Shown in pieces: positions 23,456 to 38,566 of a DNA stretch of 64,000 nucleotides. The stretch is from Nevskiales bacterium (GTDB taxonomy: Bacteria; Pseudomonadota; Gammaproteobacteria; Nevskiales; Nevskiaceae), in assembly GCA_028698335.1 (NCBI GenBank), contig JAQVDP010000004.1, forward strand, positions 62,001 through 126,000, given 5' to 3'. The notes beneath the pieces are model-generated. The model was not told the origin of the DNA and did no database searches. It worked only from the letters and a program-made list of their open reading frames with translations. The position numbers were made by a program, and so were the translations under genes. Within the stretch, counting starts at the first letter, position 1. Each line of letters opens with the position of its first letter.

Positions 23456-25165
23456 TTACGGCGCCAGCGCCGGTGCGTCATCGCGGGCGGCCGTCTGCTC
23501 GGCCGCGATCAGGTGCTTGCTCCCGGCTTCGACCGCATACGCTACGCCGAGGCTCTGTCCGTCGCTGGGCTGCGTGATGTCGTCGACGTACCAGTGCTCG
23601 CCGACCATCCGCTCGGGGGTGATGTCGAGCAGCAGATAGCCCTTCTGCGACAGATCCGCGTACTTGATGTGCGGGTTGAGCAACTGCAGCAGCGGCACCA
23701 GCGGTTGTGCCGGATCGAGCCCGGGCGACGTGATCGAGGTGCAGACGAACTCGACGCCCAGCGAACCGCTGCCGTTGAGCGGGTTGTAGACCAGCGGATT
23801 GGCCGGATCGCGGGACAGGTCCATGGCCCAGGACGTGTGGATGTCCCCGGTCAGCACCACCGGATTCTCGATCTGCAGCGACTCCAGCAGGTCGAAGACC
23901 CGGCCGCGTTCGGCGCGGTAGCCGTCCCATTGATCGGTGTTGATGATCAGCCCGCCGGTTCCGACCAGCGGCAGACTCGACAACAGCGCCTGCAGCTGCT
24001 CGATCGACAGCCCGCTGAGTTCGGACAGCTCCGGCAGGCTGGGGATGCGCAACTGACCGAACATCACCTGCTGCCCGAGGATCTTCCAGGTTGCCCCGGG
24101 CGCGGCCAGCGCCGACTGCAGCCATGCGAGCTGTTCCGGGCCGATCAGTTGCCGCGTCTCGTCGTTGATGGTCGCGGCGTCGACCATTCCCGCCTGCAGA
24201 TCGCGATCGAACAGGCGCGTGTCCAGCATCACGAAGTCCGCGAGATCCCCGTAACGGAAGCTGCGGAAAATGCGGGTGTTGTCGTTGGGGTCGACCTGCC
24301 GGATCGGCAGCCATTCGTAATAGGCCTGGATCGCCCAGGCCTTGCGCTGGACCCAGCTGCCTTCCTCCCCCTCGGTGTGGTTGTTGGCGCCGTCGCGCCA
24401 GGAATTGTCCGCGGTTTCGTGATCGTCCCAGACGTTGATGAACGGATGCTGGCGATGGACCTCCTGCAGGTCCGGATCGGTCTTGTACTGCGCGTGACGC
24501 GTCCGGTAGTCGTCGAGGGTCAGGATCTCGTGCGCCGGCTGGTATTCGCGCGTGCTGCCGTACTCGCCGGAGCCGTATTCGTAGATGTAGTCGCCCAGAT
24601 GCAGGATGACGTCCAGATCCGCGCGTTCAGCGAGCCGTCGGTAGGCGTTGAAGTAGCCGTGCGCCAGGCTCGAGCAGGACACCACGCCGACGCGCAGACG
24701 GTCCGTTGCCGTGGCCGGCGCGGTCCGGGTCCGTCCGGCCGGCGAACGCACGCCATCGACGGAGAACCGGTAGTAGTAGGTCGTCGCCGGCATCAGGCCG
24801 GCCGCGTCGACCTTCACGGTGTAATCGCGCGCGGCATCGGTGACGAAGGTGCCGCCGCTGACGCGGACGGACAGCTCAGGGTCGGCATAGACCGCGTAGT
24901 CCACGGTCACGCTGCCGGACGCCACGCCGCTGACGCGGGTCCACAGCATCACCCGGTCGGCCAGCGGATCGCCGCTGGCGACGCCATGCCGGAACTCGAC
25001 CTTGCCGTCGACGGGGCCGCGACCGCCGTCGACGGGCGAGCTGGACCCGCAGCCCGGCAACAACGGCAAGGCGCCGAACGCGGCGCCGCCCCATCCCACT
25101 CGGCGAAGGAAATCCCTGCGATTCAGAACGGCAGGCTCGGGCTTTTGACGTCGTGGGCCGGACAT
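23456..25165 (-). CDS. PhoD-like alkaline phosphatase, Tat-exported lipoprotein
   Basis: A 569-residue PhoD-family phosphatase/phosphodiesterase. It has a twin-arginine signal (NRRDFLRRVG, R16-R17) combined with a lipobox (LLPGC, Cys39), so it is probably folded in the cytoplasm, exported by Tat and lipid-anchored. An N-terminal fibronectin-like domain precedes the catalytic domain with GDYIYEYGSGEYG, WDDHETADNSW and GDIHTSWAMD, which bind the Fe/Ca cluster of PhoD enzymes. It releases phosphate from mono- or diesters. A Pho-box was not evident upstream. Confidence 0.92.
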   Translation of the reverse strand: MSGPRRQKPEPAVLNRRDFLRRVGWGGAAFGALPLLPGCGSSSPVDGGRGPVDGKVEFRHGVASGDPLADRVMLWTRVSGVASGSVTVDYAVYADPELSVRVSGGTFVTDAARDYTVKVDAAGLMPATTYYYRFSVDGVRSPAGRTRTAPATATDRLRVGVVSCSSLAHGYFNAYRRLAERADLDVILHLGDYIYEYGSGEYGSTREYQPAHEILTLDDYRTRHAQYKTDPDLQEVHRQHPFINVWDDHETADNSWRDGANNHTEGEEGSWVQRKAWAIQAYYEWLPIRQVDPNDNTRIFRSFRYGDLADFVMLDTRLFDRDLQAGMVDAATINDETRQLIGPEQLAWLQSALAAPGATWKILGQQVMFGQLRIPSLPELSELSGLSIEQLQALLSSLPLVGTGGLIINTDQWDGYRAERGRVFDLLESLQIENPVVLTGDIHTSWAMDLSRDPANPLVYNPLNGSGSLGVEFVCTSITSPGLDPAQPLVPLLQLLNPHIKYADLSQKGYLLLDITPERMVGEHWYVDDITQPSDGQSLGVAYAVEAGSKHLIAAEQTAARDDAPALAP

Positions 25166-30303: not shown

Positions 30304-31611
30304 TCAAGCGCCCTGCTGGAACACCGGCCATGCGGCGGTGATGCGCTCACCGTCGAATACGGCGATATCGCCGAATTCAAGAAACACGAATTCACTCTGA
30401 TGCGGACGCAGGAACACGTAGTCGTCCACGCCGAGCTGTACCTGCTCGGAACCGTTGAGCATTTCCTGGTTGGTCGAATGTCCCCAGATCGGATTGCGCT
30501 GTAACCCCGGCGGCGACACCGTGTCGGCGTGCCAGTACCCGCCATAGATGTAGAACGTCCGTGCGGTATTGGGATCCCAGGCGCGGAACGCCGGGCTCAT
30601 GAATTCGATCCCCGGCAACCGTGTGCTCGGCAGCGCCTTGAGTACCGGCGTCGCGATGAAGGCCGCCGGACGGTGGTCCGCAAGCGTCGGTTTGTCGAAG
30701 TCGGTCGGCATGACCAGCCCCGAACCCATCGCCAGCTCATTGCACGGTGCCGCGTCGTCGTACAGCTGATAGGTCGAGCTGCCGCCGGCATTGAGCGTCA
30801 GCGTCCGCTCGTCGAAACCGGACCCGAGCACGTTCCGGGCCGTTGTGACGCTGTCGGCGTAGAAGGCCATCGCCTCATCGAGCGCCTTGCGCGGACCGCC
30901 CAGAATCGCCGGCATTTTTGAGGCATGGGCCTCGTATCCCATGAACCCGGCGAACCGCATCGACGGCTCGGCACCGAGCAGCATCAGCAGCTCCGCGACG
31001 GCTTCCTGCGTGCGCAGCCCACCGCGGTGCAGGCCGACATCCAGCTCGAGACTGACCTGCATCGGCTGTCCGGTTTCGTTGTGGCGCGCGCGCGCCAGCT
31101 CGCGGTACTGGACCAGATGCTCCGGCGTGTCGATCAGCCACTGCATCTGCTGCTGCGGATCGAACGCACCGGGCTTGAGGTATTCGAAGAAACGCGCAGC
31201 GGCGCCAACCGGCATCGGCTTTCCGATCAGGACCCGGGCGTCGGGCATCCGCTCGGCGATGAAATTGGCAAACGGCTGGTGAAACACCATCAGGCGATCG
31301 GTGCCGGTGCGCTCGCGCACGAAGCGGATCAGCTCGAGGCTCGGCAGCGACTTGGCGACGATGCGGTAATGCTTCGACTGCGGCAGATGTGCCTGCAGGC
31401 GACCGACATTGTGCTCGAGGGCCTGACGATCGACGACCAGTGTCGGACGCCACAGTCCGGCGTCGCGCAGCGCGGTCTGCAGCTTCGCGAAGTACGCCGA
31501 GTGACCGCCGCCGTGCTCGCGTGGCTTGAACGCCGCAAACGCCAGGAGCGGGCTTGCGGCGGCGGCGCCGATCAGCGTGCGGCGTTTGAGGTTGACCTTG
31601 GAATCAGACAA
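30304..31611 (-). CDS. Tat-exported D-threonine aldolase-like PLP enzyme
   Basis: A 435-residue fold-III PLP enzyme (alanine racemase N-terminal domain, DSD1/D-threonine aldolase type). A twin-arginine signal (LKRRTLIGAAAAS, R10-R11) precedes the barrel; Lys87 in RIVAKSLPS is the expected PLP lysine. The C-terminal beta domain ends with RPHQSEFVFLEFGDIAVF, where family members place metal ligands. Known relatives cleave or dehydrate D-beta-hydroxy amino acids. Export with bound PLP implies a periplasmic D-amino-acid substrate. It overlaps the upstream oxidase gene by eight bases, so it is the third gene of the cytochrome-oxidase-PLP operon. Confidence 0.85.
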   Translation of the reverse strand: MSDSKVNLKRRTLIGAAAASPLLAFAAFKPREHGGGHSAYFAKLQTALRDAGLWRPTLVVDRQALEHNVGRLQAHLPQSKHYRIVAKSLPSLELIRFVRERTGTDRLMVFHQPFANFIAERMPDARVLIGKPMPVGAAARFFEYLKPGAFDPQQQMQWLIDTPEHLVQYRELARARHNETGQPMQVSLELDVGLHRGGLRTQEAVAELLMLLGAEPSMRFAGFMGYEAHASKMPAILGGPRKALDEAMAFYADSVTTARNVLGSGFDERTLTLNAGGSSTYQLYDDAAPCNELAMGSGLVMPTDFDKPTLADHRPAAFIATPVLKALPSTRLPGIEFMSPAFRAWDPNTARTFYIYGGYWHADTVSPPGLQRNPIWGHSTNQEMLNGSEQVQLGVDDYVFLRPHQSEFVFLEFGDIAVFDGERITAAWPVFQQGA

Positions 31612-33013
31612 GACCGAAGACCTTCTTCAGATGATCGTTGAGCATCCGTCCCTGAGGATCGAGTGCGGCGCGGACTTCGAGGAAGTCCTTCCAGCGCGGA
31701 TAACGCGCGGCCAGTGTCCGCGCATCGAGCGTATGCAGCTTGCCCCAGTGCGGCCGCCCGCCGATGTCCTGATACAGCGGCTCGATATCGGCGAAATACG
31801 GCAGCGGATCTTCCTGGTAGTAGCGGTGCACGGCGATCGACCCGGAACGGGCATGTCCGTGGAACGGACTGAGCCAGGCATCGTCGCCTTTGACGGTGCG
31901 CACCTCGATCGGGAAGAACACTTCCGAATGCGCCGACTCGATCGTCTCGCGGACCCTGCGCAGCGTCGGCAACAGGCTTTCGCGCGGCAAGTGGTACTCC
32001 ATCTCGTTGAAGCGGACGGCGCGCTCCGACGGAAACACGCGGTACCACAGGTCGACCGCCTCTTCGGGCTCGTAGTCCTCGGTCGCCTTGTTCAGCAGCA
32101 GGCGCCGCAGCCCGGGCCACCAGCCGATCACGTCACGCAACTGCTTCATCTGCATGACCGCGTCGTTGTCGGGTTCCGCCTGCCGCGGCCGGATGGGCTC
32201 GTCGGTGGGATTGATCGTGATCCCGACAGCGCGATCGCAGAACGGAATGAAATACATCTCGAAGCTGTGGTTCGACTCGGCCAGCTCGTCGAAACGTTCG
32301 AGCAACTGGTCGAGCGGCTCGATCCACACCCGCCGCTTGAGGCGGTGCGTCGGCACGTTCTGCAGCGTCACCTCGGTGATCAGGCCCAGGCTGCCGAGGG
32401 ATACGCGCGCGGCATCGAATACCTCGGGATGGCGGTCCCGGCTGCATTCGATCACTTCACCCGCCGGCGTCACCAGGGTCAGCGCCGTCAACATCGAATG
32501 CAGCGCGCCGAGGTCCTGGCCGGTTCCGTGCGTTCCGGTCGAGATCGCGCCGGCGATGGATTGCTCGTCGATGTCGGGCATGTTCGGCAGCGCCTGCCCG
32601 ACGGGATCGAGCAACTCGCCGAGCTGGCCCAGCTTGGTTCCGGCACCGAGCGTTGCCGTCAGGGCCTCGGCGTCGTGGCGGACCAGACCCTCGAAATTGC
32701 GCAGCGAGACGATCGTGCCGTCGGTCGGCACCAGCGGGGTGAACGAGTGTCCGGCGCCGACCGGGCGGATCCCGCCGCGGGAGTGCCTGAGCGCATCGAC
32801 CAGCTCATCGAGGGACTTCGGCGCAATGCGGGCATCCGGCAGGCAGTGCTGATAGCCGGACCAGTTCTGCCACGGAATCCGGCGCTTGCCATCGGGACCG
32901 ACGGTGACCCCCGGCGATTTCGGCATGCCGGACGCCCCGTGGTCGTCGCAGGCGACGAGTGATCCCGCGGTGGCCAGGCTCAGAGAGGACAACAGGAATT
33001 CGCGACGATTCAT
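31604..33013 (-). CDS. Tat-exported FAD aldonolactone oxidase-like protein
   Basis: A 469-residue VAO-type flavoprotein of the D-arabinono-1,4-lactone oxidase family. Signal NRREFLLSS (R3-R4) plus SLVAC (Cys22) suggests Tat export and lipid anchoring. The FAD domain shows PVGAGHSF, with the His that often binds FAD covalently, and GAISTGTHGTG. The C-terminal ALO domain has the HWGK signature (422-425). Relatives oxidise sugar lactones to ascorbate-like products, some using cytochrome c as acceptor. A c-type cytochrome gene lies 28 bases upstream. The true substrate is unknown. Confidence 0.87.
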   Translation of the reverse strand: MNRREFLLSSLSLATAGSLVACDDHGASGMPKSPGVTVGPDGKRRIPWQNWSGYQHCLPDARIAPKSLDELVDALRHSRGGIRPVGAGHSFTPLVPTDGTIVSLRNFEGLVRHDAEALTATLGAGTKLGQLGELLDPVGQALPNMPDIDEQSIAGAISTGTHGTGQDLGALHSMLTALTLVTPAGEVIECSRDRHPEVFDAARVSLGSLGLITEVTLQNVPTHRLKRRVWIEPLDQLLERFDELAESNHSFEMYFIPFCDRAVGITINPTDEPIRPRQAEPDNDAVMQMKQLRDVIGWWPGLRRLLLNKATEDYEPEEAVDLWYRVFPSERAVRFNEMEYHLPRESLLPTLRRVRETIESAHSEVFFPIEVRTVKGDDAWLSPFHGHARSGSIAVHRYYQEDPLPYFADIEPLYQDIGGRPHWGKLHTLDARTLAARYPRWKDFLEVRAALDPQGRMLNDHLKKVFGLV

Positions 33014-33041
33014 CGGCAGCAGCTCCGGAGGGGTTCGCCCC

Positions 33042-33419
33042 TCAACCCTCGGACATGAACTGAATCAGGGCCAGGAAATCCGCCTCGCTGCAGTCCATGC
33101 AGGACCCCAGCGGTGGCATGCCCTTGTAGCCGGACAGGGTGTGATCCAGCAGCACCGATTCGCCCTGCGCCAGACGGGGCGCCCACGCCGCCACGTCGCC
33201 ACTCAACGGAGCGCCGCTGGCGGGATTGCTGTGACAGCCCTGGCAGGTCTGGCTGTAGATCTTTGCGAGTGCCGGGTCCTGGGGCAGCTTGGAGGCGACC
33301 TCGGACACAGCCGCCGGAGCGGGGGCATCGGACGGTCCGGATCCGCACGCGGCCAGCGTCGCGATCAGAGCGGCCGCCGGCAGGCGGAGGTAAAGCGGGC
33401 GAACTCGAGACAACAGCAT
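33042..33419 (-). CDS. c-type cytochrome lipoprotein
   Basis: A 125-residue monoheme cytochrome of the c5 type. The signal peptide ends at a lipobox (LAAC, Cys25). The heme site is CQGCH (59-63), the likely axial Met is M101 in GYKGMPP, and a CMDC pair (107, 110) matches the disulfide of c5 cytochromes. It is the first gene of the leftward operon and the natural electron acceptor for the flavoprotein encoded next. Export would be by Sec with heme attachment in the periplasm. Confidence 0.9.
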   Translation of the reverse strand: MLLSRVRPLYLRLPAAALIATLAACGSGPSDAPAPAAVSEVASKLPQDPALAKIYSQTCQGCHSNPASGAPLSGDVAAWAPRLAQGESVLLDHTLSGYKGMPPLGSCMDCSEADFLALIQFMSEG

Positions 33420-33532
33420 GACGGAGCGCTCCCCGGGCGGGTGATGGATACGACGGCAACGACCGGCCGCTCAGCCCTGCGCCGCATCGCCGGAACGATG
33501 GTCGGCCTCCGGCCATCGAGTCGCAACAGTAA

Positions 33533-33553
33533 AAACATACTAACGGTATGTTT
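33533..33553. promoter_or_regulatory. TetR-type operator between divergent operons
   Basis: Perfect 8-bp arms AAACATAC and GTATGTTT are separated by five bases (TAACG). Size and symmetry are typical of TetR operators. A -10-like TATGAT at 33570-33575 would place the operator over the -35 region of the rightward operon, which contains a TetR gene at 35380. It could also cover the leftward promoter. Confidence 0.7.
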
Positions 33554-33629
33554 CGGTGAATTGCAGCGATATGATGAGCCGACATCGATTGGCTGCCGGC
33601 AGCGCGGTCATAACCGGGAGAACGAGCTG

Positions 33630-34040
33630 ATGCATGCGTGGTTACTCTCACGCCTGTGGGAGGCACTGTTCATCAATGCCGAGCTGGCGGTGATCCCACC
33701 GGCGGCGTGGCTGTTGCTCGGCCTGGTGCTGGGAGGGATCTGGATCCATGCCCGGCCTCGGCGGTGCCCGGGGGGCGCCGGCACCGCGCGCCGGTGGATC
33801 GGCCACGGTCTGCGGACCGTGGCGCTGGTCGTCGCGGTCGGTGGCGGCCTGCTGGCAGCCGCCACGTGGTTCGCCGCGCCGTTGCTGGACGACGCCGACC
33901 TGAGCGCGACGATCAGGGTGCAGGCCAGGTCGATCGCCGCCGGACTGATGGCGGGTGCCGGTCTTGCGGCATTGGCGACGCTGGCGCTACGCGGGCCTGC
34001 CTCGGCACTCATGTGCGGTCGCGGCGGGGATTGGCGATGA
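33630..34040 (+). CDS. Small membrane protein of unknown function
   Basis: A 136-residue protein with three hydrophobic segments (around residues 22-35, 62-85 and 102-123) and an Arg-rich stretch after the first. I recognise no family. ATG at 33630 has a GGGAG Shine-Dalgarno. Its stop overlaps the ATG of the exported aminotransferase (ATGA), so the two are translationally coupled. It may anchor or assist the periplasmic enzymes; this is only context. Confidence 0.75.
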   Translation: MHAWLLSRLWEALFINAELAVIPPAAWLLLGLVLGGIWIHARPRRCPGGAGTARRWIGHGLRTVALVVAVGGGLLAAATWFAAPLLDDADLSATIRVQARSIAAGLMAGAGLAALATLALRGPASALMCGRGGDWR

Positions 34041-35383
34041 TCAGTCGCCGCAGCCTCCTCGGCATCGGCGCCATTGGCGCGGCGGGCGCTGCCGTCCACC
34101 CGCGCGCCGAGCAGGCCGCACAGTTGCTCGGCCGGATCGGAGCGGACGAGTCGGCGCCGGCGGGCTGGAACGCGGTGCGCGACGCATTCGACTTCGCGCA
34201 TGCCGCCGCGCCACGGATTCCGATGAACGCGGCCAATCTCACCCCGGAATCGGCACCCGTCTCCGAAGCGATCACCCGAGCCGCACGCCACCTGAACCTG
34301 GACGCGTCCTTCCATCACCGGCTGCTGTTTCTCAAGGCCCAGCGCCAGCGCCTGGCGACGCTGCTCCGCGTGCACCTGGGCATCGAACACCCGTCGAGTG
34401 TCGCAGTGGTCCGCAACACCACCGAGGCCAATGCCATCGTCATCAACGGGCTGGCGCTGAGTGCCGGGGACGAAATCGTGCTCTGGGCGCAGAATCACGA
34501 TACCAACTACCTGAGCTGGCACTACCGCAACAGTGACCGGGGCTGCCGCTGCGTCACCGTCGAAACCCCAGGGCAGCCGCGTGACGACCAGCAGATCGTC
34601 GATGCATTTCTCGCCAAGCTGACGCCGGCGACCCGGGTCGTCTCGTTCAGTCACATCTCCAACGTCACCGGCCTGCGCCTACCCGCCGCAGCGCTATGTG
34701 CCGCGATCCGCTCCTACAACCCCCGGATCTTCATCCATATCGACGGCGCTCAGAGTTGGGGCGCGGTGAGGCTGGATTTGCAGGCCCTGGACTGCGACAG
34801 CTACTCGGCCAGCGCGCACAAGTGGCTGGCGGGCCCGCGCGAACTGGGATTGTTGTACGTGCGCCCGGAATGGATCGAACGCCTGCAGCCCAGCACCGTC
34901 GGATACGACTACGCGATCGAGTATCCCGAGCATGGGCTTCCGTCCGACGCCGAGCGCTTTGCGCTGCTGGGCCAGCGCAACGACGCCCAGCTGGCCGGAC
35001 TCAATACGGCACTCGAATTGCAGATGAATTGGAATCCGGACCGGATCGAAGCACGCATTGCCGAACTGGGCCTGCAGCTCCGGCAGCGGCTCGCCGGCGC
35101 CGGCTTCCGGCTGGTCACCCCCGAGGATCGGCGCTACGCCCTGGGCGTGACCGTGGTCGACCTCGGCGTTGCCGCTGGCGAAGTCGTCAGCGTCTTTCGC
35201 AGGCTGTACGAAGTCCATCGCATTTATGGCGCCTACATTCATGGCCGTAAGGTCTACTGCGACGACCGGCCTCCCGACACACCCGTTGAACATCTGTATC
35301 TGAGACTGTGCCCACACATCTACAACACGCCGGACGACATCGAACGCGTCGCGTCGATTCTCCACACCGAACTGCACCGATGA
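34037..35383 (+). CDS. Tat-exported class V aminotransferase-like PLP enzyme
   Basis: A 448-residue fold-I PLP enzyme of the isopenicillin-N-epimerase/cysteine-desulfurase class. The twin-arginine signal is SRRSLLGIGAIGAAGA (R4-R5). HIDGAQSWG gives the PLP-binding Asp/Gln, and Lys262 in SASAHKWLAG is the Schiff-base lysine. A precedent is PvdN, a Tat-exported class V enzyme that modifies pyoverdine in the periplasm. It is coupled to the membrane protein upstream and to tetR downstream (ATGA overlap), and the TonB receptor follows. The reaction is unknown. Confidence 0.86.
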   Translation: MISRRSLLGIGAIGAAGAAVHPRAEQAAQLLGRIGADESAPAGWNAVRDAFDFAHAAAPRIPMNAANLTPESAPVSEAITRAARHLNLDASFHHRLLFLKAQRQRLATLLRVHLGIEHPSSVAVVRNTTEANAIVINGLALSAGDEIVLWAQNHDTNYLSWHYRNSDRGCRCVTVETPGQPRDDQQIVDAFLAKLTPATRVVSFSHISNVTGLRLPAAALCAAIRSYNPRIFIHIDGAQSWGAVRLDLQALDCDSYSASAHKWLAGPRELGLLYVRPEWIERLQPSTVGYDYAIEYPEHGLPSDAERFALLGQRNDAQLAGLNTALELQMNWNPDRIEARIAELGLQLRQRLAGAGFRLVTPEDRRYALGVTVVDLGVAAGEVVSVFRRLYEVHRIYGAYIHGRKVYCDDRPPDTPVEHLYLRLCPHIYNTPDDIERVASILHTELHR

Positions 35384-36003
35384 CCGAAAAGAACGGTCCG
35401 AGACAGCAGCGCGCGCGCGAGACGCGCCTGCGCCTGATCGACGTTGCCGAACAGCTGTTCGTGGAGCACGGCTACACGCCGGTCTCGGTGGAGCGCATCG
35501 TGCGAGCCGCCGAGGTGACCAAGGGCGCGTTCTATCATCATTTTCCCGACAAACTTGCGGTCTTCCGCGCCGCGTTCGAGCGTGTGGACCGGGAAATGGC
35601 CGAGCGCGTGATGCTCGGCGCGCTCCAGGGCAACTCGCCGCTGGAGATGGTCGGCAAGGGGATGCGTGCATGTTTCGAGCTCTGCACCACGCCCCGCTAC
35701 GGCCGTCTGGTCTATATCGAAGCCCCGAATGCCCTGGGCTGGGAAGAATGGCACCGGATCGATACCAGTATCGCCGCAGAGCTGGTCCATGCCGGCCTCG
35801 AGGCGGCCGTCGAGATGGGTGAACTCTCCGCTGAGGCGCACTCGATCGAGGCGCTGACCACCCTGCTGCTCGGCTCGATCCTCCAGGCGGCGATCACCAT
35901 CGCCCAGGCCGACGATCGCCAGGCGACCTGTCTGAAGCTCGCAGATGAAATGGACCAGTTGCTGCGTGCGCTCTCCTCCGCTTCCACATCCACAACCGTT
36001 TAG
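35380..36003 (+). CDS. TetR-family repressor of the divergent operons
   Basis: A 207-residue TetR regulator. HTH residues ~33-55 (TPVSVERIVRAAEVTKGAFY, HHFPDKLAVF); the ligand domain contains the WEEWHRID region seen in related repressors. Its ATG overlaps the aminotransferase stop. Location inside the operon and a perfect 21-bp palindrome in the divergent promoter suggest it represses both operons, including itself. The inducer is probably the imported or processed ligand. Confidence 0.9.
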   Translation: MTEKNGPRQQRARETRLRLIDVAEQLFVEHGYTPVSVERIVRAAEVTKGAFYHHFPDKLAVFRAAFERVDREMAERVMLGALQGNSPLEMVGKGMRACFELCTTPRYGRLVYIEAPNALGWEEWHRIDTSIAAELVHAGLEAAVEMGELSAEAHSIEALTTLLLGSILQAAITIAQADDRQATCLKLADEMDQLLRALSSASTSTTV

Positions 36004-36007
36004 ATCC

Positions 36008-38566
36008 ATGAACAGACTCGCATCGGGACTCATCGCCGCCGCCGTCGCTTGCTCGGCGCTCCCGGCCGCTCAGGCCCAGGATGATCTGGACTTTCTGTTC
36101 AGTGACGCCCCCCCGCCTCCGGAAAGCCAGGCCCAGACCGGCGCCGGCACCGAGTCGCCAACGCCGCAGCCGGCACCGGCGGCGGCCGATGACAGCCCGC
36201 CGGATGCGGACGGTACCGAGCCGCTGCAGGCGGTGATCCCGGTCGAACCGCTGCACCCTCCGCAGGAGGAGCCGCAACAGACACCGCCGCCCCGGCGCCA
36301 GATCGAGGAGATCGTTGTCACCGCCCAGAAGACGGAGCAGTCGCTGCAGGATGTCCCGCTCTCGGTCAGCGCGCTGAGCGGTGATTTCATCAAGCAGACC
36401 GGCGCGGCCGACCTCACCGATGTGGCCGCGTACGTCCCGAACGTACGCGTCGATACCGACGACCCGGGCTCGCCGCAGGTGTTCATCCGCGGATTCGGTA
36501 CCAACACCTTCAACCCGAGTTTCGAAAGCTCGGTCGGCTTCGTCCAGGACGAGATCTTCTTCGGTCGTGGCGGATACTTCACCGAGTCGATGTTCGATAT
36601 CGATCGCATCGAGGTGCTGCGGGGTCCCCAAGGGACGCTATTCGGGAAGAACACCATTGCAGGCGTCTTCAACGTCACCAGCGCAGGACCGACGGAAGAG
36701 TTCTCCGGCGACGTCCGCTACACCATGGGATCCTACGGAGACCGTCGCATCGAAGTCGGCATGGGCGGCATGGTGACCGACTGGGCCGGCATACGCGTGT
36801 CGGCCCTCAAACGCAGTTCCGACGGTCAGCTGTACAACAGCTTTCTCGATCGCGACGAGGAAAAGCTCGACCAGCGCGCCGAACGCCTGAAGCTGCGCCT
36901 GTATCCGTCCGATTCGGTCGATATGGAACTGACCGTGGTCGATTCGGACACCAGTATCGCGTTCTGGCCGTATCAGCTGTACAAGCTCGATGCTGGCAGT
37001 ACCGCCTATCTGCGGTCCTTCGACCCGGAAATCGAGGATCAGCCCAACGACCTGACCTCGATGGACACGGTCGGTTATCTGGACAAGGGGTCGACCACCG
37101 CAGGCCTGAAGACGGCCTGGTCGGTCGGCGACCTCGGCGGGATCCACGATTTCGAGACTGTCGTGGTGCTCGGCATCTCGCAGTTCTACATCGACCAGCT
37201 CAACGATCTGGACGTGTCGCCGTCCGACATCTCGCGGCTGGACAGTCATGAGGATCACGATCAGCGGACGGTCGAGCTGCGCTTCACCGGAAACAGCGAC
37301 GGCCTTTTCGGCCTCGGCGAGCGTCTCGAATTCGTCACCGGCCTGTATTACTTCGACTCGGACTACGTCCTCAACGCCAAGGTCATTGCCGGCCAGGACC
37401 TGGGATCCTATGCCGTCACGGGCGACGCCCTGGAGCTGATCAGCGGAACCAGCTTCGGGGGGCTGTTCGGCGGCATCACGCTGCCGGGCCTGCCGCTGCT
37501 GGGCACGATCACCGCTCCGCTGATCGGCGACGACTACTACGGGTTCCACTACACCCAGGGGATCACCGCATACGCGGCCTTCGGTCAGTTCACCTGGTAT
37601 CTCGACGAGCACTGGGCGATCACCCCGGGCATCCGTCTGAATCGCGAGAGCAAGGACGTTTCCGCGCAGGGTGGCGGGCATTGCCGGACCGAAGCGCTCG
37701 AGATCTGCATCATGCAGGCCCTGGTTCAGGGCAGCCCGTACGACGAACCCGATCTGCGCCGCAACGAGACCGACGTCTCGCCGAAATTCGTGCTGCAGTA
37801 TTTCTGGGACGACGACCTCAACTTCTATACCAGTTACGCGCGCGGCTACAAGAGCGGCGGCTTCAACGCGATCTCTTTCACCGGAGAAGGCATCGAGTAC
37901 GAGCCGGAAAACGCGCAGACCTACGAGCTGGGCATGAAGGGCAAGTTCCTGGACGGCACCCTGAGTCTGAACACGACCCTGTACCGCACCGAATTCGACA
38001 ACCTGCAGGTCCTGGCCTTCAACGGCTTCTTCTTCGATGTCAGCAATGCCGCGTCCGCCTATTCGCAGGGCCTCGAAGCCGATTTCATGTGGCTGACCCC
38101 CTTCGAGCCGCTGACGATCACCGGTTCACTCGGCATTCTCGACGCCCGTTACGACAACTACGTGGGGGCGCCGGCCCCCTACGGTTCCGAAGAGGACACC
38201 CAGGACCTGAGCGGAAAGCGGATCGCCTTCGCGCCGAGCAAGACCGCCACGCTGACCCCGACATTGTCGCTGCCGCTGTTCGGCAGTCTGGTCACGCAGC
38301 TGAGCGTGGACCTGCTTTATCAGGGCGACCAGTACACGGACACGGATCTGGACCCGAACACCTATGTCGACGATTACATGATGGTGTCGGCGCGGATCAG
38401 CCTCGCCGACGAACAGGGGCTGTGGAGCATCACCTTCGGCGGCAGCAACCTGACCGACAAGCGCGTATTGAATCAGGTCACCGACGCGACATTTTTCCCG
38501 GGCACATACTTCGCGCAACTCGGTGGCGGGCGGCAGCTGTTCGGCGCCGTGTCGATCAACTGGTGA
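36008..38566 (+). CDS. TonB-dependent outer-membrane receptor
   Basis: An 852-residue TonB-dependent receptor. The signal peptide is cleaved after AQA (residue 23). An unusual Pro/Glu/Ala-rich segment of ~75 residues follows, then the TonB box EEIVVTAQK (about 99-107), the plug (QDVPLSVSALSG, VEVLRGPQGTLFGKN-like RIEVLRGPQGTLFGKNT) and a 22-strand barrel ending in an aromatic-rich last strand with terminal Trp. It uses energy from TonB/ExbBD to import a ligand. It starts five bases after tetR, same operon. The plug resembles receptors for non-iron as well as iron ligands, so the cargo is open. Confidence 0.92.
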   Translation: MNRLASGLIAAAVACSALPAAQAQDDLDFLFSDAPPPPESQAQTGAGTESPTPQPAPAAADDSPPDADGTEPLQAVIPVEPLHPPQEEPQQTPPPRRQIEEIVVTAQKTEQSLQDVPLSVSALSGDFIKQTGAADLTDVAAYVPNVRVDTDDPGSPQVFIRGFGTNTFNPSFESSVGFVQDEIFFGRGGYFTESMFDIDRIEVLRGPQGTLFGKNTIAGVFNVTSAGPTEEFSGDVRYTMGSYGDRRIEVGMGGMVTDWAGIRVSALKRSSDGQLYNSFLDRDEEKLDQRAERLKLRLYPSDSVDMELTVVDSDTSIAFWPYQLYKLDAGSTAYLRSFDPEIEDQPNDLTSMDTVGYLDKGSTTAGLKTAWSVGDLGGIHDFETVVVLGISQFYIDQLNDLDVSPSDISRLDSHEDHDQRTVELRFTGNSDGLFGLGERLEFVTGLYYFDSDYVLNAKVIAGQDLGSYAVTGDALELISGTSFGGLFGGITLPGLPLLGTITAPLIGDDYYGFHYTQGITAYAAFGQFTWYLDEHWAITPGIRLNRESKDVSAQGGGHCRTEALEICIMQALVQGSPYDEPDLRRNETDVSPKFVLQYFWDDDLNFYTSYARGYKSGGFNAISFTGEGIEYEPENAQTYELGMKGKFLDGTLSLNTTLYRTEFDNLQVLAFNGFFFDVSNAASAYSQGLEADFMWLTPFEPLTITGSLGILDARYDNYVGAPAPYGSEEDTQDLSGKRIAFAPSKTATLTPTLSLPLFGSLVTQLSVDLLYQGDQYTDTDLDPNTYVDDYMMVSARISLADEQGLWSITFGGSNLTDKRVLNQVTDATFFPGTYFAQLGGGRQLFGAVSINW

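What the first reader, a model, noticed from the sequence alone, without database searches (positions are those of the whole stretch)
30304..38566. Periplasmic two-PLP-enzyme, cytochrome-linked oxidase and TonB receptor system under one TetR
Seven genes in two divergent operons look like one system. Seen: three gene products carry twin-arginine signals (D-threonine-aldolase-like, aldonolactone-oxidase-like, class V aminotransferase-like), one is a cytochrome c lipoprotein, one a TonB receptor, one a small membrane protein, and one a TetR regulator; the gene overlaps are tight. Known: PvdN is a Tat-exported class V PLP enzyme that modifies pyoverdine in the periplasm. Inference: a ligand with amino-acid and possibly sugar-lactone-like parts is imported and chemically processed in the periplasm. 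Two cofactor-loaded PLP enzymes exported by Tat in one locus is rare to my knowledge.
Basis: partly seen in the sequence, partly recalled or inferred. Interest (0 to 1): 0.72.

Follow-up and report, generated by a model that had tools for sequence, protein, structure and literature searches.

The report
Relative of bacterial sphingosine-breakdown operon
The locus holds a relative of the three-gene operon that Pseudomonas uses to break down sphingosine, an antimicrobial lipid, here joined to a likely repressor site, an outer-membrane receptor and a second exported vitamin-B6 enzyme, which makes the unsolved chemistry of that operon easier to test.

Summary
The seven genes are as described. The minus-strand trio (cytochrome c lipoprotein, FAD enzyme, PLP enzyme) is homologous, in order, to Pseudomonas aeruginosa sphB-sphC-sphD, a sphingosine-metabolism operon (62.6, 48.7, 45.0% identity). 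It is the conserved unit: of 112 loci 103 have the FAD gene, 97 directly beside the PLP gene. The window lies in a side branch where a TonB receptor sits beside the trio (12 of 14 rows). A palindrome CATAC-N5-GTATG lies in the divergent gap of the window and of the four other loci with this tetR, and in none of the other 34 order loci searched. The small membrane protein and PvdN-like enzyme are a separable pair; the PvdN-like family also precedes a second cytochrome/FAD pair in Pseudomaricurvus and lies near a ceramidase gene in another genome. The trio's PLP enzyme is no canonical D-threonine aldolase: the metal His is Gln, Val or Ile in 113 of 113 rows. Proposed: periplasmic oxidation of a sphingoid base, with one or two exported PLP enzymes acting on the product. 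Substrate and chemistry are inferred; siderophore or sugar-lactone ligands lack support.

The parts
30304..31611 (-). A: SphD-like, Tat-exported fold-type III PLP enzyme (alanine-racemase N-terminal fold)
   Evidence: PF01168 E 1e-18; 45.0% over 407 aa to the P. aeruginosa protein beside sphR; Lys87 in 112 of 113 rows, one gap
31604..33013 (-). B: SphC-like FAD enzyme of the aldonolactone/alditol oxidase family, Tat signal plus lipobox
   Evidence: PF01565, PF04030; TIGR01679 526 bits, cut-off 292; 48.7% over 429 aa to SphC
33042..33419 (-). C: SphB-like cytochrome c lipoprotein
   Evidence: PF13442; 62.6% over 99 aa to SphB
33533..33553 (.). Predicted TetR operator AAACATACTAACGGTATGTTT in the divergent gap
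   Evidence: core in the window and 4 of 38 wide order loci, the four that have an F homolog of 54% or more; exact 12-base form in 4 of 85 genomes, each time here
33630..34040 (+). D: small membrane protein, about three hydrophobic segments
   Evidence: no Pfam match; hydropathy; weak homolog directly upstream of E in five other order genomes
34037..35383 (+). E: PvdN-like class V (fold-type I) PLP enzyme with twin-arginine start
   Evidence: PF00266; best solved relative PvdN 5i90, E 2.8e-27, PLP lysine aligned; 108 bits to the PvdN model, cut-off 650
35380..36003 (+). F: TetR-family regulator
   Evidence: PF00440 and PF21351; homologs of 54-58% only in the four other loci that carry the palindrome
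36008..38566 (+). G: TonB-dependent outer-membrane receptor
   Evidence: PF07715, PF00593 (the query began one codon upstream or further); 58-88% homologs beside the trio in 9 of 10 fetched order loci of this branch, 52-53% in L073 and L074

Best explanation
C-B-A is a SphBCD-type module for periplasmic oxidation of a sphingoid base or a closely similar long-chain amino alcohol. Steps: G brings the lipid, or a lipid-bearing ligand, through the outer membrane (inferred). B, held on the periplasmic side, oxidises an alcohol of the base and passes electrons to cytochrome C and the respiratory chain; that SphB and SphC together are needed for sphingosine loss is shown in P. aeruginosa, direct action is shown neither there nor here. 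My inference: oxidation of the C1 alcohol to the acid turns (2S,3R)-sphingosine into a D-configured beta-hydroxy-alpha-amino acid, the substrate class of the D-threonine-aldolase fold; [quoted passage not shown] E is a second, alternative PLP partner of the same chemistry, placed under the same TetR operator (inferred from gene context in three settings). F represses the divergent promoters through CATAC-N5-GTATG until a ligand binds (indicated by sequence, not shown).
For: Same three Pfam families in the same order as PA5328-PA5326 and 62.6/48.7/45.0% identity. In the P. aeruginosa record the trio is followed by a transporter gene and sphR. SphR binds sphingosine and induces sphBCD and the ceramidase gene (PMC3900636 passages); sphBC are needed for sphingosine metabolism and SphC is Tat-secreted (PMC11893366). 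A and B adjacent in 97 of 112 loci. Neutral ceramidase (family f17) lies within the loci of six modules of the sister branch, next to or within about 1.2 kb of the trio; 4 of 4 members tested confirmed, one a fragment. Operator. G-linked A rows cluster: 12 of 14 in one clade, support 99. E family: directly upstream of a second SphBC-like pair and downstream of a TonB receptor in L123, and about 4 kb from a ceramidase in G121. B keeps the covalent-FAD His and the Glu/Arg/His/Lys that align with alditol oxidase, 104 of 105 each; the gatekeeper position is not Gly in 97 of 105.
Against: The window's branch is not the Pseudomonas branch (A 45% identical), and no sphA or sphR homolog was found in the 27 kb around it. 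In P. aeruginosa sphD is dispensable under the conditions tested, and sphBC deletion in P. fluorescens WCS365 or sphC deletion in C. crescentus shows little or no sphingosine phenotype. A lacks the metal His and the His193 equivalent of D-threonine aldolase, so aldol cleavage is uncertain. Ceramidase co-occurrence (28 of 38 module genomes, 12 of 47 others) vanishes when labels are shuffled within genera (p 0.54), and the ceramidases next to a trio are in the sister branch. G relatives of 54-61% occur in 14 genomes away from a trio of this type.
Confidence: 0.65

Rival explanations
1. Same SphBCD family, but this branch has shifted to another amino alcohol or hydroxylated amino compound delivered by the TonB receptor; TetR and TonB replaced SphR and SphA because the ligand changed.
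For: Separate clade of A; other regulator and outer-membrane protein; 11 of 85 genomes have this type, 27 the 40-48% type, none both.
Against: The active-site positions that could be checked are shared by both branches. That genomes have one type or the other but never both fits replacement with the same job. 10 of the 11 genomes of this type have a ceramidase gene, though this is no more than expected within their genera.
Confidence: 0.2
2. One reading: periplasmic tailoring or processing of a siderophore or similar peptide ligand, by analogy with PvdN.
For: E is PvdN-like; a TonB receptor is present.
Against: One short Condensation-domain match in the genome, 34.8 bits, just over its cut-off of 30.6; E scores 108 bits against a PvdN cut-off of 650, and G is under the cut-off of every model shown, 25 of 29; D-E is in 1 of 38 fetched order loci.
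Confidence: 0.05
3. Sugar-lactone or polyol oxidation by B and C, with PLP enzymes that merely ride along.
For: B is closest to an alditol-oxidase-like protein, alditol oxidase and galactonolactone dehydrogenase among solved structures.
Against: A and B are adjacent in 97 of 112 loci, and in L123 each of two FAD/cytochrome pairs has a PLP gene next to it, one of type A and one of type E: a joint pathway on an amino compound. The studied homolog acts in sphingosine metabolism.
Confidence: 0.06

Closest known systems
P. aeruginosa sphBCD (PA5328-PA5326) with sphR and sphA
   Same: Three homologous genes in the same order; Tat-exported FAD enzyme, cytochrome c lipoprotein, PLP enzyme with the same RPxQSE motif
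   Different: TetR with its own predicted operator instead of the AraC activator SphR; TonB receptor instead of the SphA porin; extra D-E pair; 45-63% identity; sister clade
PvdN and PtaA, Tat-exported periplasmic PLP enzymes of pyoverdine tailoring (review passages)
   Same: E: fold-type I PLP enzyme with Tat signal, best solved hit PvdN
   Different: Far below the PvdN model cut-off; genome nearly without NRPS condensation domains; company of SphBC-like and ceramidase genes. PtaA was not compared
D-threonine aldolase / D-3-hydroxyaspartate aldolase / D-serine dehydratase (DSD1 superfamily)
   Same: Fold, PLP lysine, stacking Tyr
   Different: Metal ligands His-x-Asp replaced by Gln(Val/Ile)-x-Glu; His193 equivalent not conserved; no PF14031; exported
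Alditol oxidase and galactonolactone dehydrogenase (VAO family)
   Same: B: covalent-FAD His of the oxidases and aligned catalytic residues
   Different: Tat lipoprotein with a cytochrome partner; Pro at the gatekeeper position in the window

Membership tests
SphBCD module | cytochrome c, ALO-family FAD enzyme and alanine-racemase-fold PLP enzyme, in that order on one strand | tested here: met
SphBCD module | FAD enzyme exported by Tat, cytochrome a lipoprotein | tested here: met
   by sequence only:
SphBCD module | A in the same clade as the Pseudomonas protein | tested here: not met
   window in its own clade of 14, support 99; P. aeruginosa SphD falls with other Pseudomonas inside the 40-48% group: homologous module, orthology not shown
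SphBCD module | control by SphR, company of SphA | tested here: not met
   no homolog of either among the kept ORFs of window 21001-48000; TetR and predicted operator instead
SphBCD module | needed for sphingosine metabolism | not testable with these tools
   needs deletion strains or purified enzymes
D-threonine aldolase | PLP lysine | tested here: met
   Lys87 in 112 of 113 rows, one gap
D-threonine aldolase | divalent-metal ligands His347 and Asp349 (A. xylosoxidans numbering) | tested here: not met
   position 405 Gln 107, Val 4, Ile 2 of 113; Glu407 113 of 113; aligned by hhalign, probability 99.85, to 11 relatives of which 4 carry the HCD motif
D-threonine aldolase | PF14031 domain | tested here: not met
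   absent in A, in P. aeruginosa SphD and in a deaminase-like relative (L207); present in the aldolase-like L209
PvdN | score over the NCBIfam equivalog cut-off | tested here: not met
   108 against 650 bits
Aldonolactone oxidase versus dehydrogenase | Gly at the flavin gatekeeper position in oxidases, Ala in dehydrogenases | tested here: inconclusive
   Pro146 in the window; Pro 76, Ser 10, Ala 10, Gly 8, Thr 1 of 105
TonB siderophore receptor | score over the model cut-off | tested here: not met
   TIGR01783 106 against 223.5 bits

The most novel reading that the evidence does not exclude
A TonB-fed, TetR-controlled pathway that takes sphingoid bases apart outside the cytoplasm: the FAD enzyme makes a long-chain D-beta-hydroxy-alpha-amino acid, and two exported PLP enzymes of different folds, a metal-free aldolase-like one (SphD type) and a PvdN-like one, process that intermediate by alternative routes.
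Probability: 0.28. Interest if true: 0.8.

Novelty: new variant of a known kind. Interest (0 to 1): 0.6.

Why it matters
The product that SphB and SphC make from sphingosine is unknown and SphD has no assigned role (PMC11893366). This locus ties the module to a regulator with a mappable operator, a candidate uptake receptor and a second PLP enzyme; comparison over 112 loci shows that SphD-type proteins lack the aldolase metal site; and the stereochemical argument predicts a definite product to look for. It also suggests that environmental bacteria outside Pseudomonas break down or detoxify sphingoid bases, which are antimicrobial lipids of animals and plants.

Tried and rejected
The alignment over the metal site scores below zero on its own; one search is firmer, but only 4 of its 11 template rows have the HCD motif, the other 7 being deaminase-like with RHAKAGE, so a deaminase-like activity of A is also open. 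Siderophore tailoring: rejected. Own sphingolipid synthesis: TIGR01825 gave one match under its cut-off (360.6 of 535.4 bits), inconclusive. Neighbours of 14 unlinked G relatives: a gene that by eye is alanine dehydrogenase just upstream in four close relatives, otherwise nothing that I could read as shared. Co-occurrence: Fisher tests were nominally significant (A with ceramidase 28 of 38 against 12 of 47; D-E 6 of 6 in genomes with A and 6 of 6 in genomes with G) but not when labels are shuffled within genera (p 0.54, 0.13, 0.23; G with A 0.08); at genus level A with ceramidase gives p 0.03. For this I dropped 7 of the 47 ceramidase-positive genomes by hand as weak matches (best E 2.6e-9 to 2.6e-14 and the like); all 7 have the module, and one of them (G056) was later confirmed as a ceramidase fragment. 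Tat filters undercounted B (73 of 105, 55 of 105) because they reject the acidic or basic residues after RR; residue conservation was used instead. Promoter and terminator scan of the divergent gap found nothing. The control of the operator search (pattern read backwards) also hit 4 of 85 genomes, once each: the 12-base form is not rare as such, its place is the evidence. Weak TetR matches (33-36%) near five sister-branch modules (L045, L046, L050, L058, L067) have no palindrome. Rows dropped before the 112-locus counts: L063 and L068 (weak A relatives) and five recognised duplicates, L069-L072 and L146. Only 11 candidates per genome were scored in the G search.
Full report
What is there. The window is G000:C23:62001-126000 of a 4.3 Mb draft genome in 44 contigs. 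Two genomes placed in the same genus have contigs of the same length as records of Sinimarinibacterium sp. CAU 1509 (452,977 bases) and Solimonas variicoloris (103,265 bases); NCBI puts Sinimarinibacterium in Nevskiales. The species of the window itself was not named. Pfam: A alanine-racemase N-terminal domain, B FAD-binding plus ALO, C cytochrome c, E class V aminotransferase, F TetR, G TonB plug and barrel, D none.

How much of it is a unit. A matches 47 of 85 genomes of the order at E <= 0.001; 38 of 85 are strong (E 3.4e-86 or better), 11 at 62-100% identity (own included) and 27 at 40-48%, and no genome has both types. Of 398 genomes drawn from the phylum 23 have a match at E <= 1e-60. 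I fetched 38 wide order loci: 36 strong ones (all but the window itself and G029, whose hit is at a contig end) and two weak ones. Window, 36 order loci and 75 of the 80 (five duplicates dropped) make the 112-locus set. A is in all 112, B in 103, adjacent on the same strand in 97, elsewhere in the locus in 6, absent in 9. An ORF with CxxCH lies just upstream of B in 71 of 100 testable loci (controls 4 of 99 and 4 of 100). Besides A, B and C no family is in more than 25 of the 112 loci. So the conserved unit is C-B-A.

What the unit is. In a P. [quoted passage not shown] The window proteins are 62.6% (C, 99 aa), 48.7% (B, 429 aa) and 45.0% (A, 407 aa) identical to these. This is the sphBCD operon, PA5328-PA5326; Okino and Ito list the same three domain names (passages of PMC5150637). 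SphR binds sphingosine and induces sphA, sphBCD and the ceramidase gene (passages of PMC3900636). In P. aeruginosa sphingosine accumulates without sphBC, SphC is Tat-secreted, SphB is a predicted cytochrome c lipoprotein, sphD was dispensable, and the product is unknown (PMC11893366: outline, one part of the text and sections 3, 18, 20 and 22). [quoted passage not shown]

Branches. On a quick tree of 112 A rows the window lies in a clade of 14 (support 99) of which 12 have a G-type receptor beside the trio: ten of the order and two others, a Spongiibacteraceae MAG (L073) and Litorivivens lipolytica (L074); the two without are L040 and L075. P. aeruginosa SphD falls with other Pseudomonas rows inside the 40-48% group. 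Of the 11 order genomes with the window type of A, 10 have a G relative of 58% or more beside the trio; 14 further genomes have a relative of 54-61% elsewhere, and none of these has the window type of A. Some genomes also have second, more distant receptors of 36-52%. Linkage of G needs at least four changes on the receptor tree. In the sister branch a neutral ceramidase lies in the same locus in six cases, of four genera (L044, L047, L049, L055, L064, L065), 4 of 4 tested confirmed, one a fragment; AraC proteins related to SphR are in 13 loci, two of them at 45% and 65% identity and the rest at 23-29%. The window genome has a ceramidase gene on another contig.

Regulation. Window 33533-33553 reads AAACATAC-TAACG-GTATGTTT. 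The core CATAC-N5-GTATG occurs once in the 64 kb window and in 4 of the 38 wide loci, L031, L035, L036 and L037, each time in the gap upstream of C; these four and the window are the five loci with an F homolog of 54% or more. In a further 1.83 Mb of loci only re-fetched copies of the same places matched (L070, L149, L151). The 12-base form is in 4 of 85 genomes, once each and at this place; its backward control also hits 4 of 85. In L035-L037 the order is C<-|->F-G; in the window and L031 it is C<-|->D-E-F-G, so D-E lies between operator and tetR; that it was inserted there is inferred.

D-E. E relatives of 53-56% are in G044 (linked, L031) and in G040, G048, G053 and G054 at other places, with a weak D homolog directly upstream in each. 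Outside the order two relatives of the E family show what company it keeps. In Pseudomaricurvus alkylphenolicus (L123) one stretch reads A-C-B, tetR-like gene (no Pfam match, 27.5% to F over 80 aa), TonB receptor, E-type enzyme with a Tat start (43.9% over 396 aa to the window's E), then a second cytochrome c and a second FAD enzyme (50.6% over 83 aa to C, 43.8% over 447 aa to B). So there an E-type PLP gene stands next to its own SphBC-like pair, as A does next to the other. In G121 (43%) an 8 kb contig carries the E-type gene, a penicillin-amidase-family gene, an AraC gene (33.6% to SphR over 113 aa only) and a neutral ceramidase (PF04734, E 2.7e-76). This company is the best evidence that E works on the same class of substrate as A.

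Chemistry. A keeps Lys87, Tyr226 and Ser278 (112 of 113 rows each, one gap). The D-threonine-aldolase metal ligands His-x-Asp correspond to position 405 (Gln 107, Val 4, Ile 2) and Glu407 (113 of 113), and the His193 equivalent is Lys 57, Ala 23, Ser 15, Met 8 and others (numbering from passages of PMC4401734; the His193 match is read from the alignment). P. aeruginosa SphD has the same RPTQSE motif. B: His89 for covalent FAD, Glu370, Arg372, His396 and Lys425 104 of 105 each; that the last four are the alditol-oxidase catalytic residues is recalled, their alignment is. Gatekeeper Pro146: Pro 76, Ser 10, Ala 10, Gly 8, Thr 1 of 105. In plant-type GalDH, Ala here limits oxygen and Gly admits it (passages of PMC11099136); Pro is not covered, so 'dehydrogenase' rests on the cytochrome partner. 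Stereochemistry, from CIP rules and no call: in (2S,3R)-sphingosine, oxidation of C1 to the carboxylate swaps the priorities at C2 and gives an R, that is D, amino acid with a beta-hydroxyl. This would explain a D-type rather than an L-type aldolase fold.

Limits. I found no experiment on this branch (paper searches, an open-access library only). The substrate is assigned by homology to a sister branch in which direct action on sphingosine is itself unproved. Ceramidase co-occurrence is confounded by relatedness. The trees of A are quick ones.

Noticed in passing
window 23456-25165: Another protein with a twin-arginine start; ORFs of one family with it are in L031 and L041 among others (family 39). 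Its function was not searched.
   Followed up: no
L123 9001-18503: Two cytochrome/FAD pairs in one stretch, one beside an A-type and one beside an E-type PLP gene, with a TonB receptor between and two related tetR-like genes.
   Followed up: partly
L184 300-7863: E-type gene, penicillin-amidase-family gene, AraC gene and neutral ceramidase on one 8 kb contig.
   Followed up: partly
L193, L197, L198, L199: Unlinked G-type TonB receptors directly downstream of a gene that by eye is alanine dehydrogenase, in four close relatives.
   Followed up: partly
L086 3270-7109; L087: A di-haem oxidoreductase (PF06537) and a sodium:solute symporter just upstream of the trio (tested in L086 only; L087 has the same two families).
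   Followed up: partly
L096, L098, L112, L129: Nearly identical A proteins in a Hyphomonas MAG and Acidobacteriota MAGs: recent transfer or misbinned contigs.
   Followed up: no
L213 (NZ_CP070468.1): A record named as a P. aeruginosa plasmid carries a chromosome-like stretch rph-pyrE-sphBCD-sphR-argB-dut.
   Followed up: no
L063 8676-9998, minus strand: A distant relative of A (26% identity) with a start like a Tat lipoprotein and no B match in the locus.
   Followed up: no
window 33496-33518: A GC-rich inverted repeat (CGATGGTCGGCCTCCGGCCATCG) beside the predicted operator; no counterpart among the top repeats printed for 12 relatives.
   Followed up: partly
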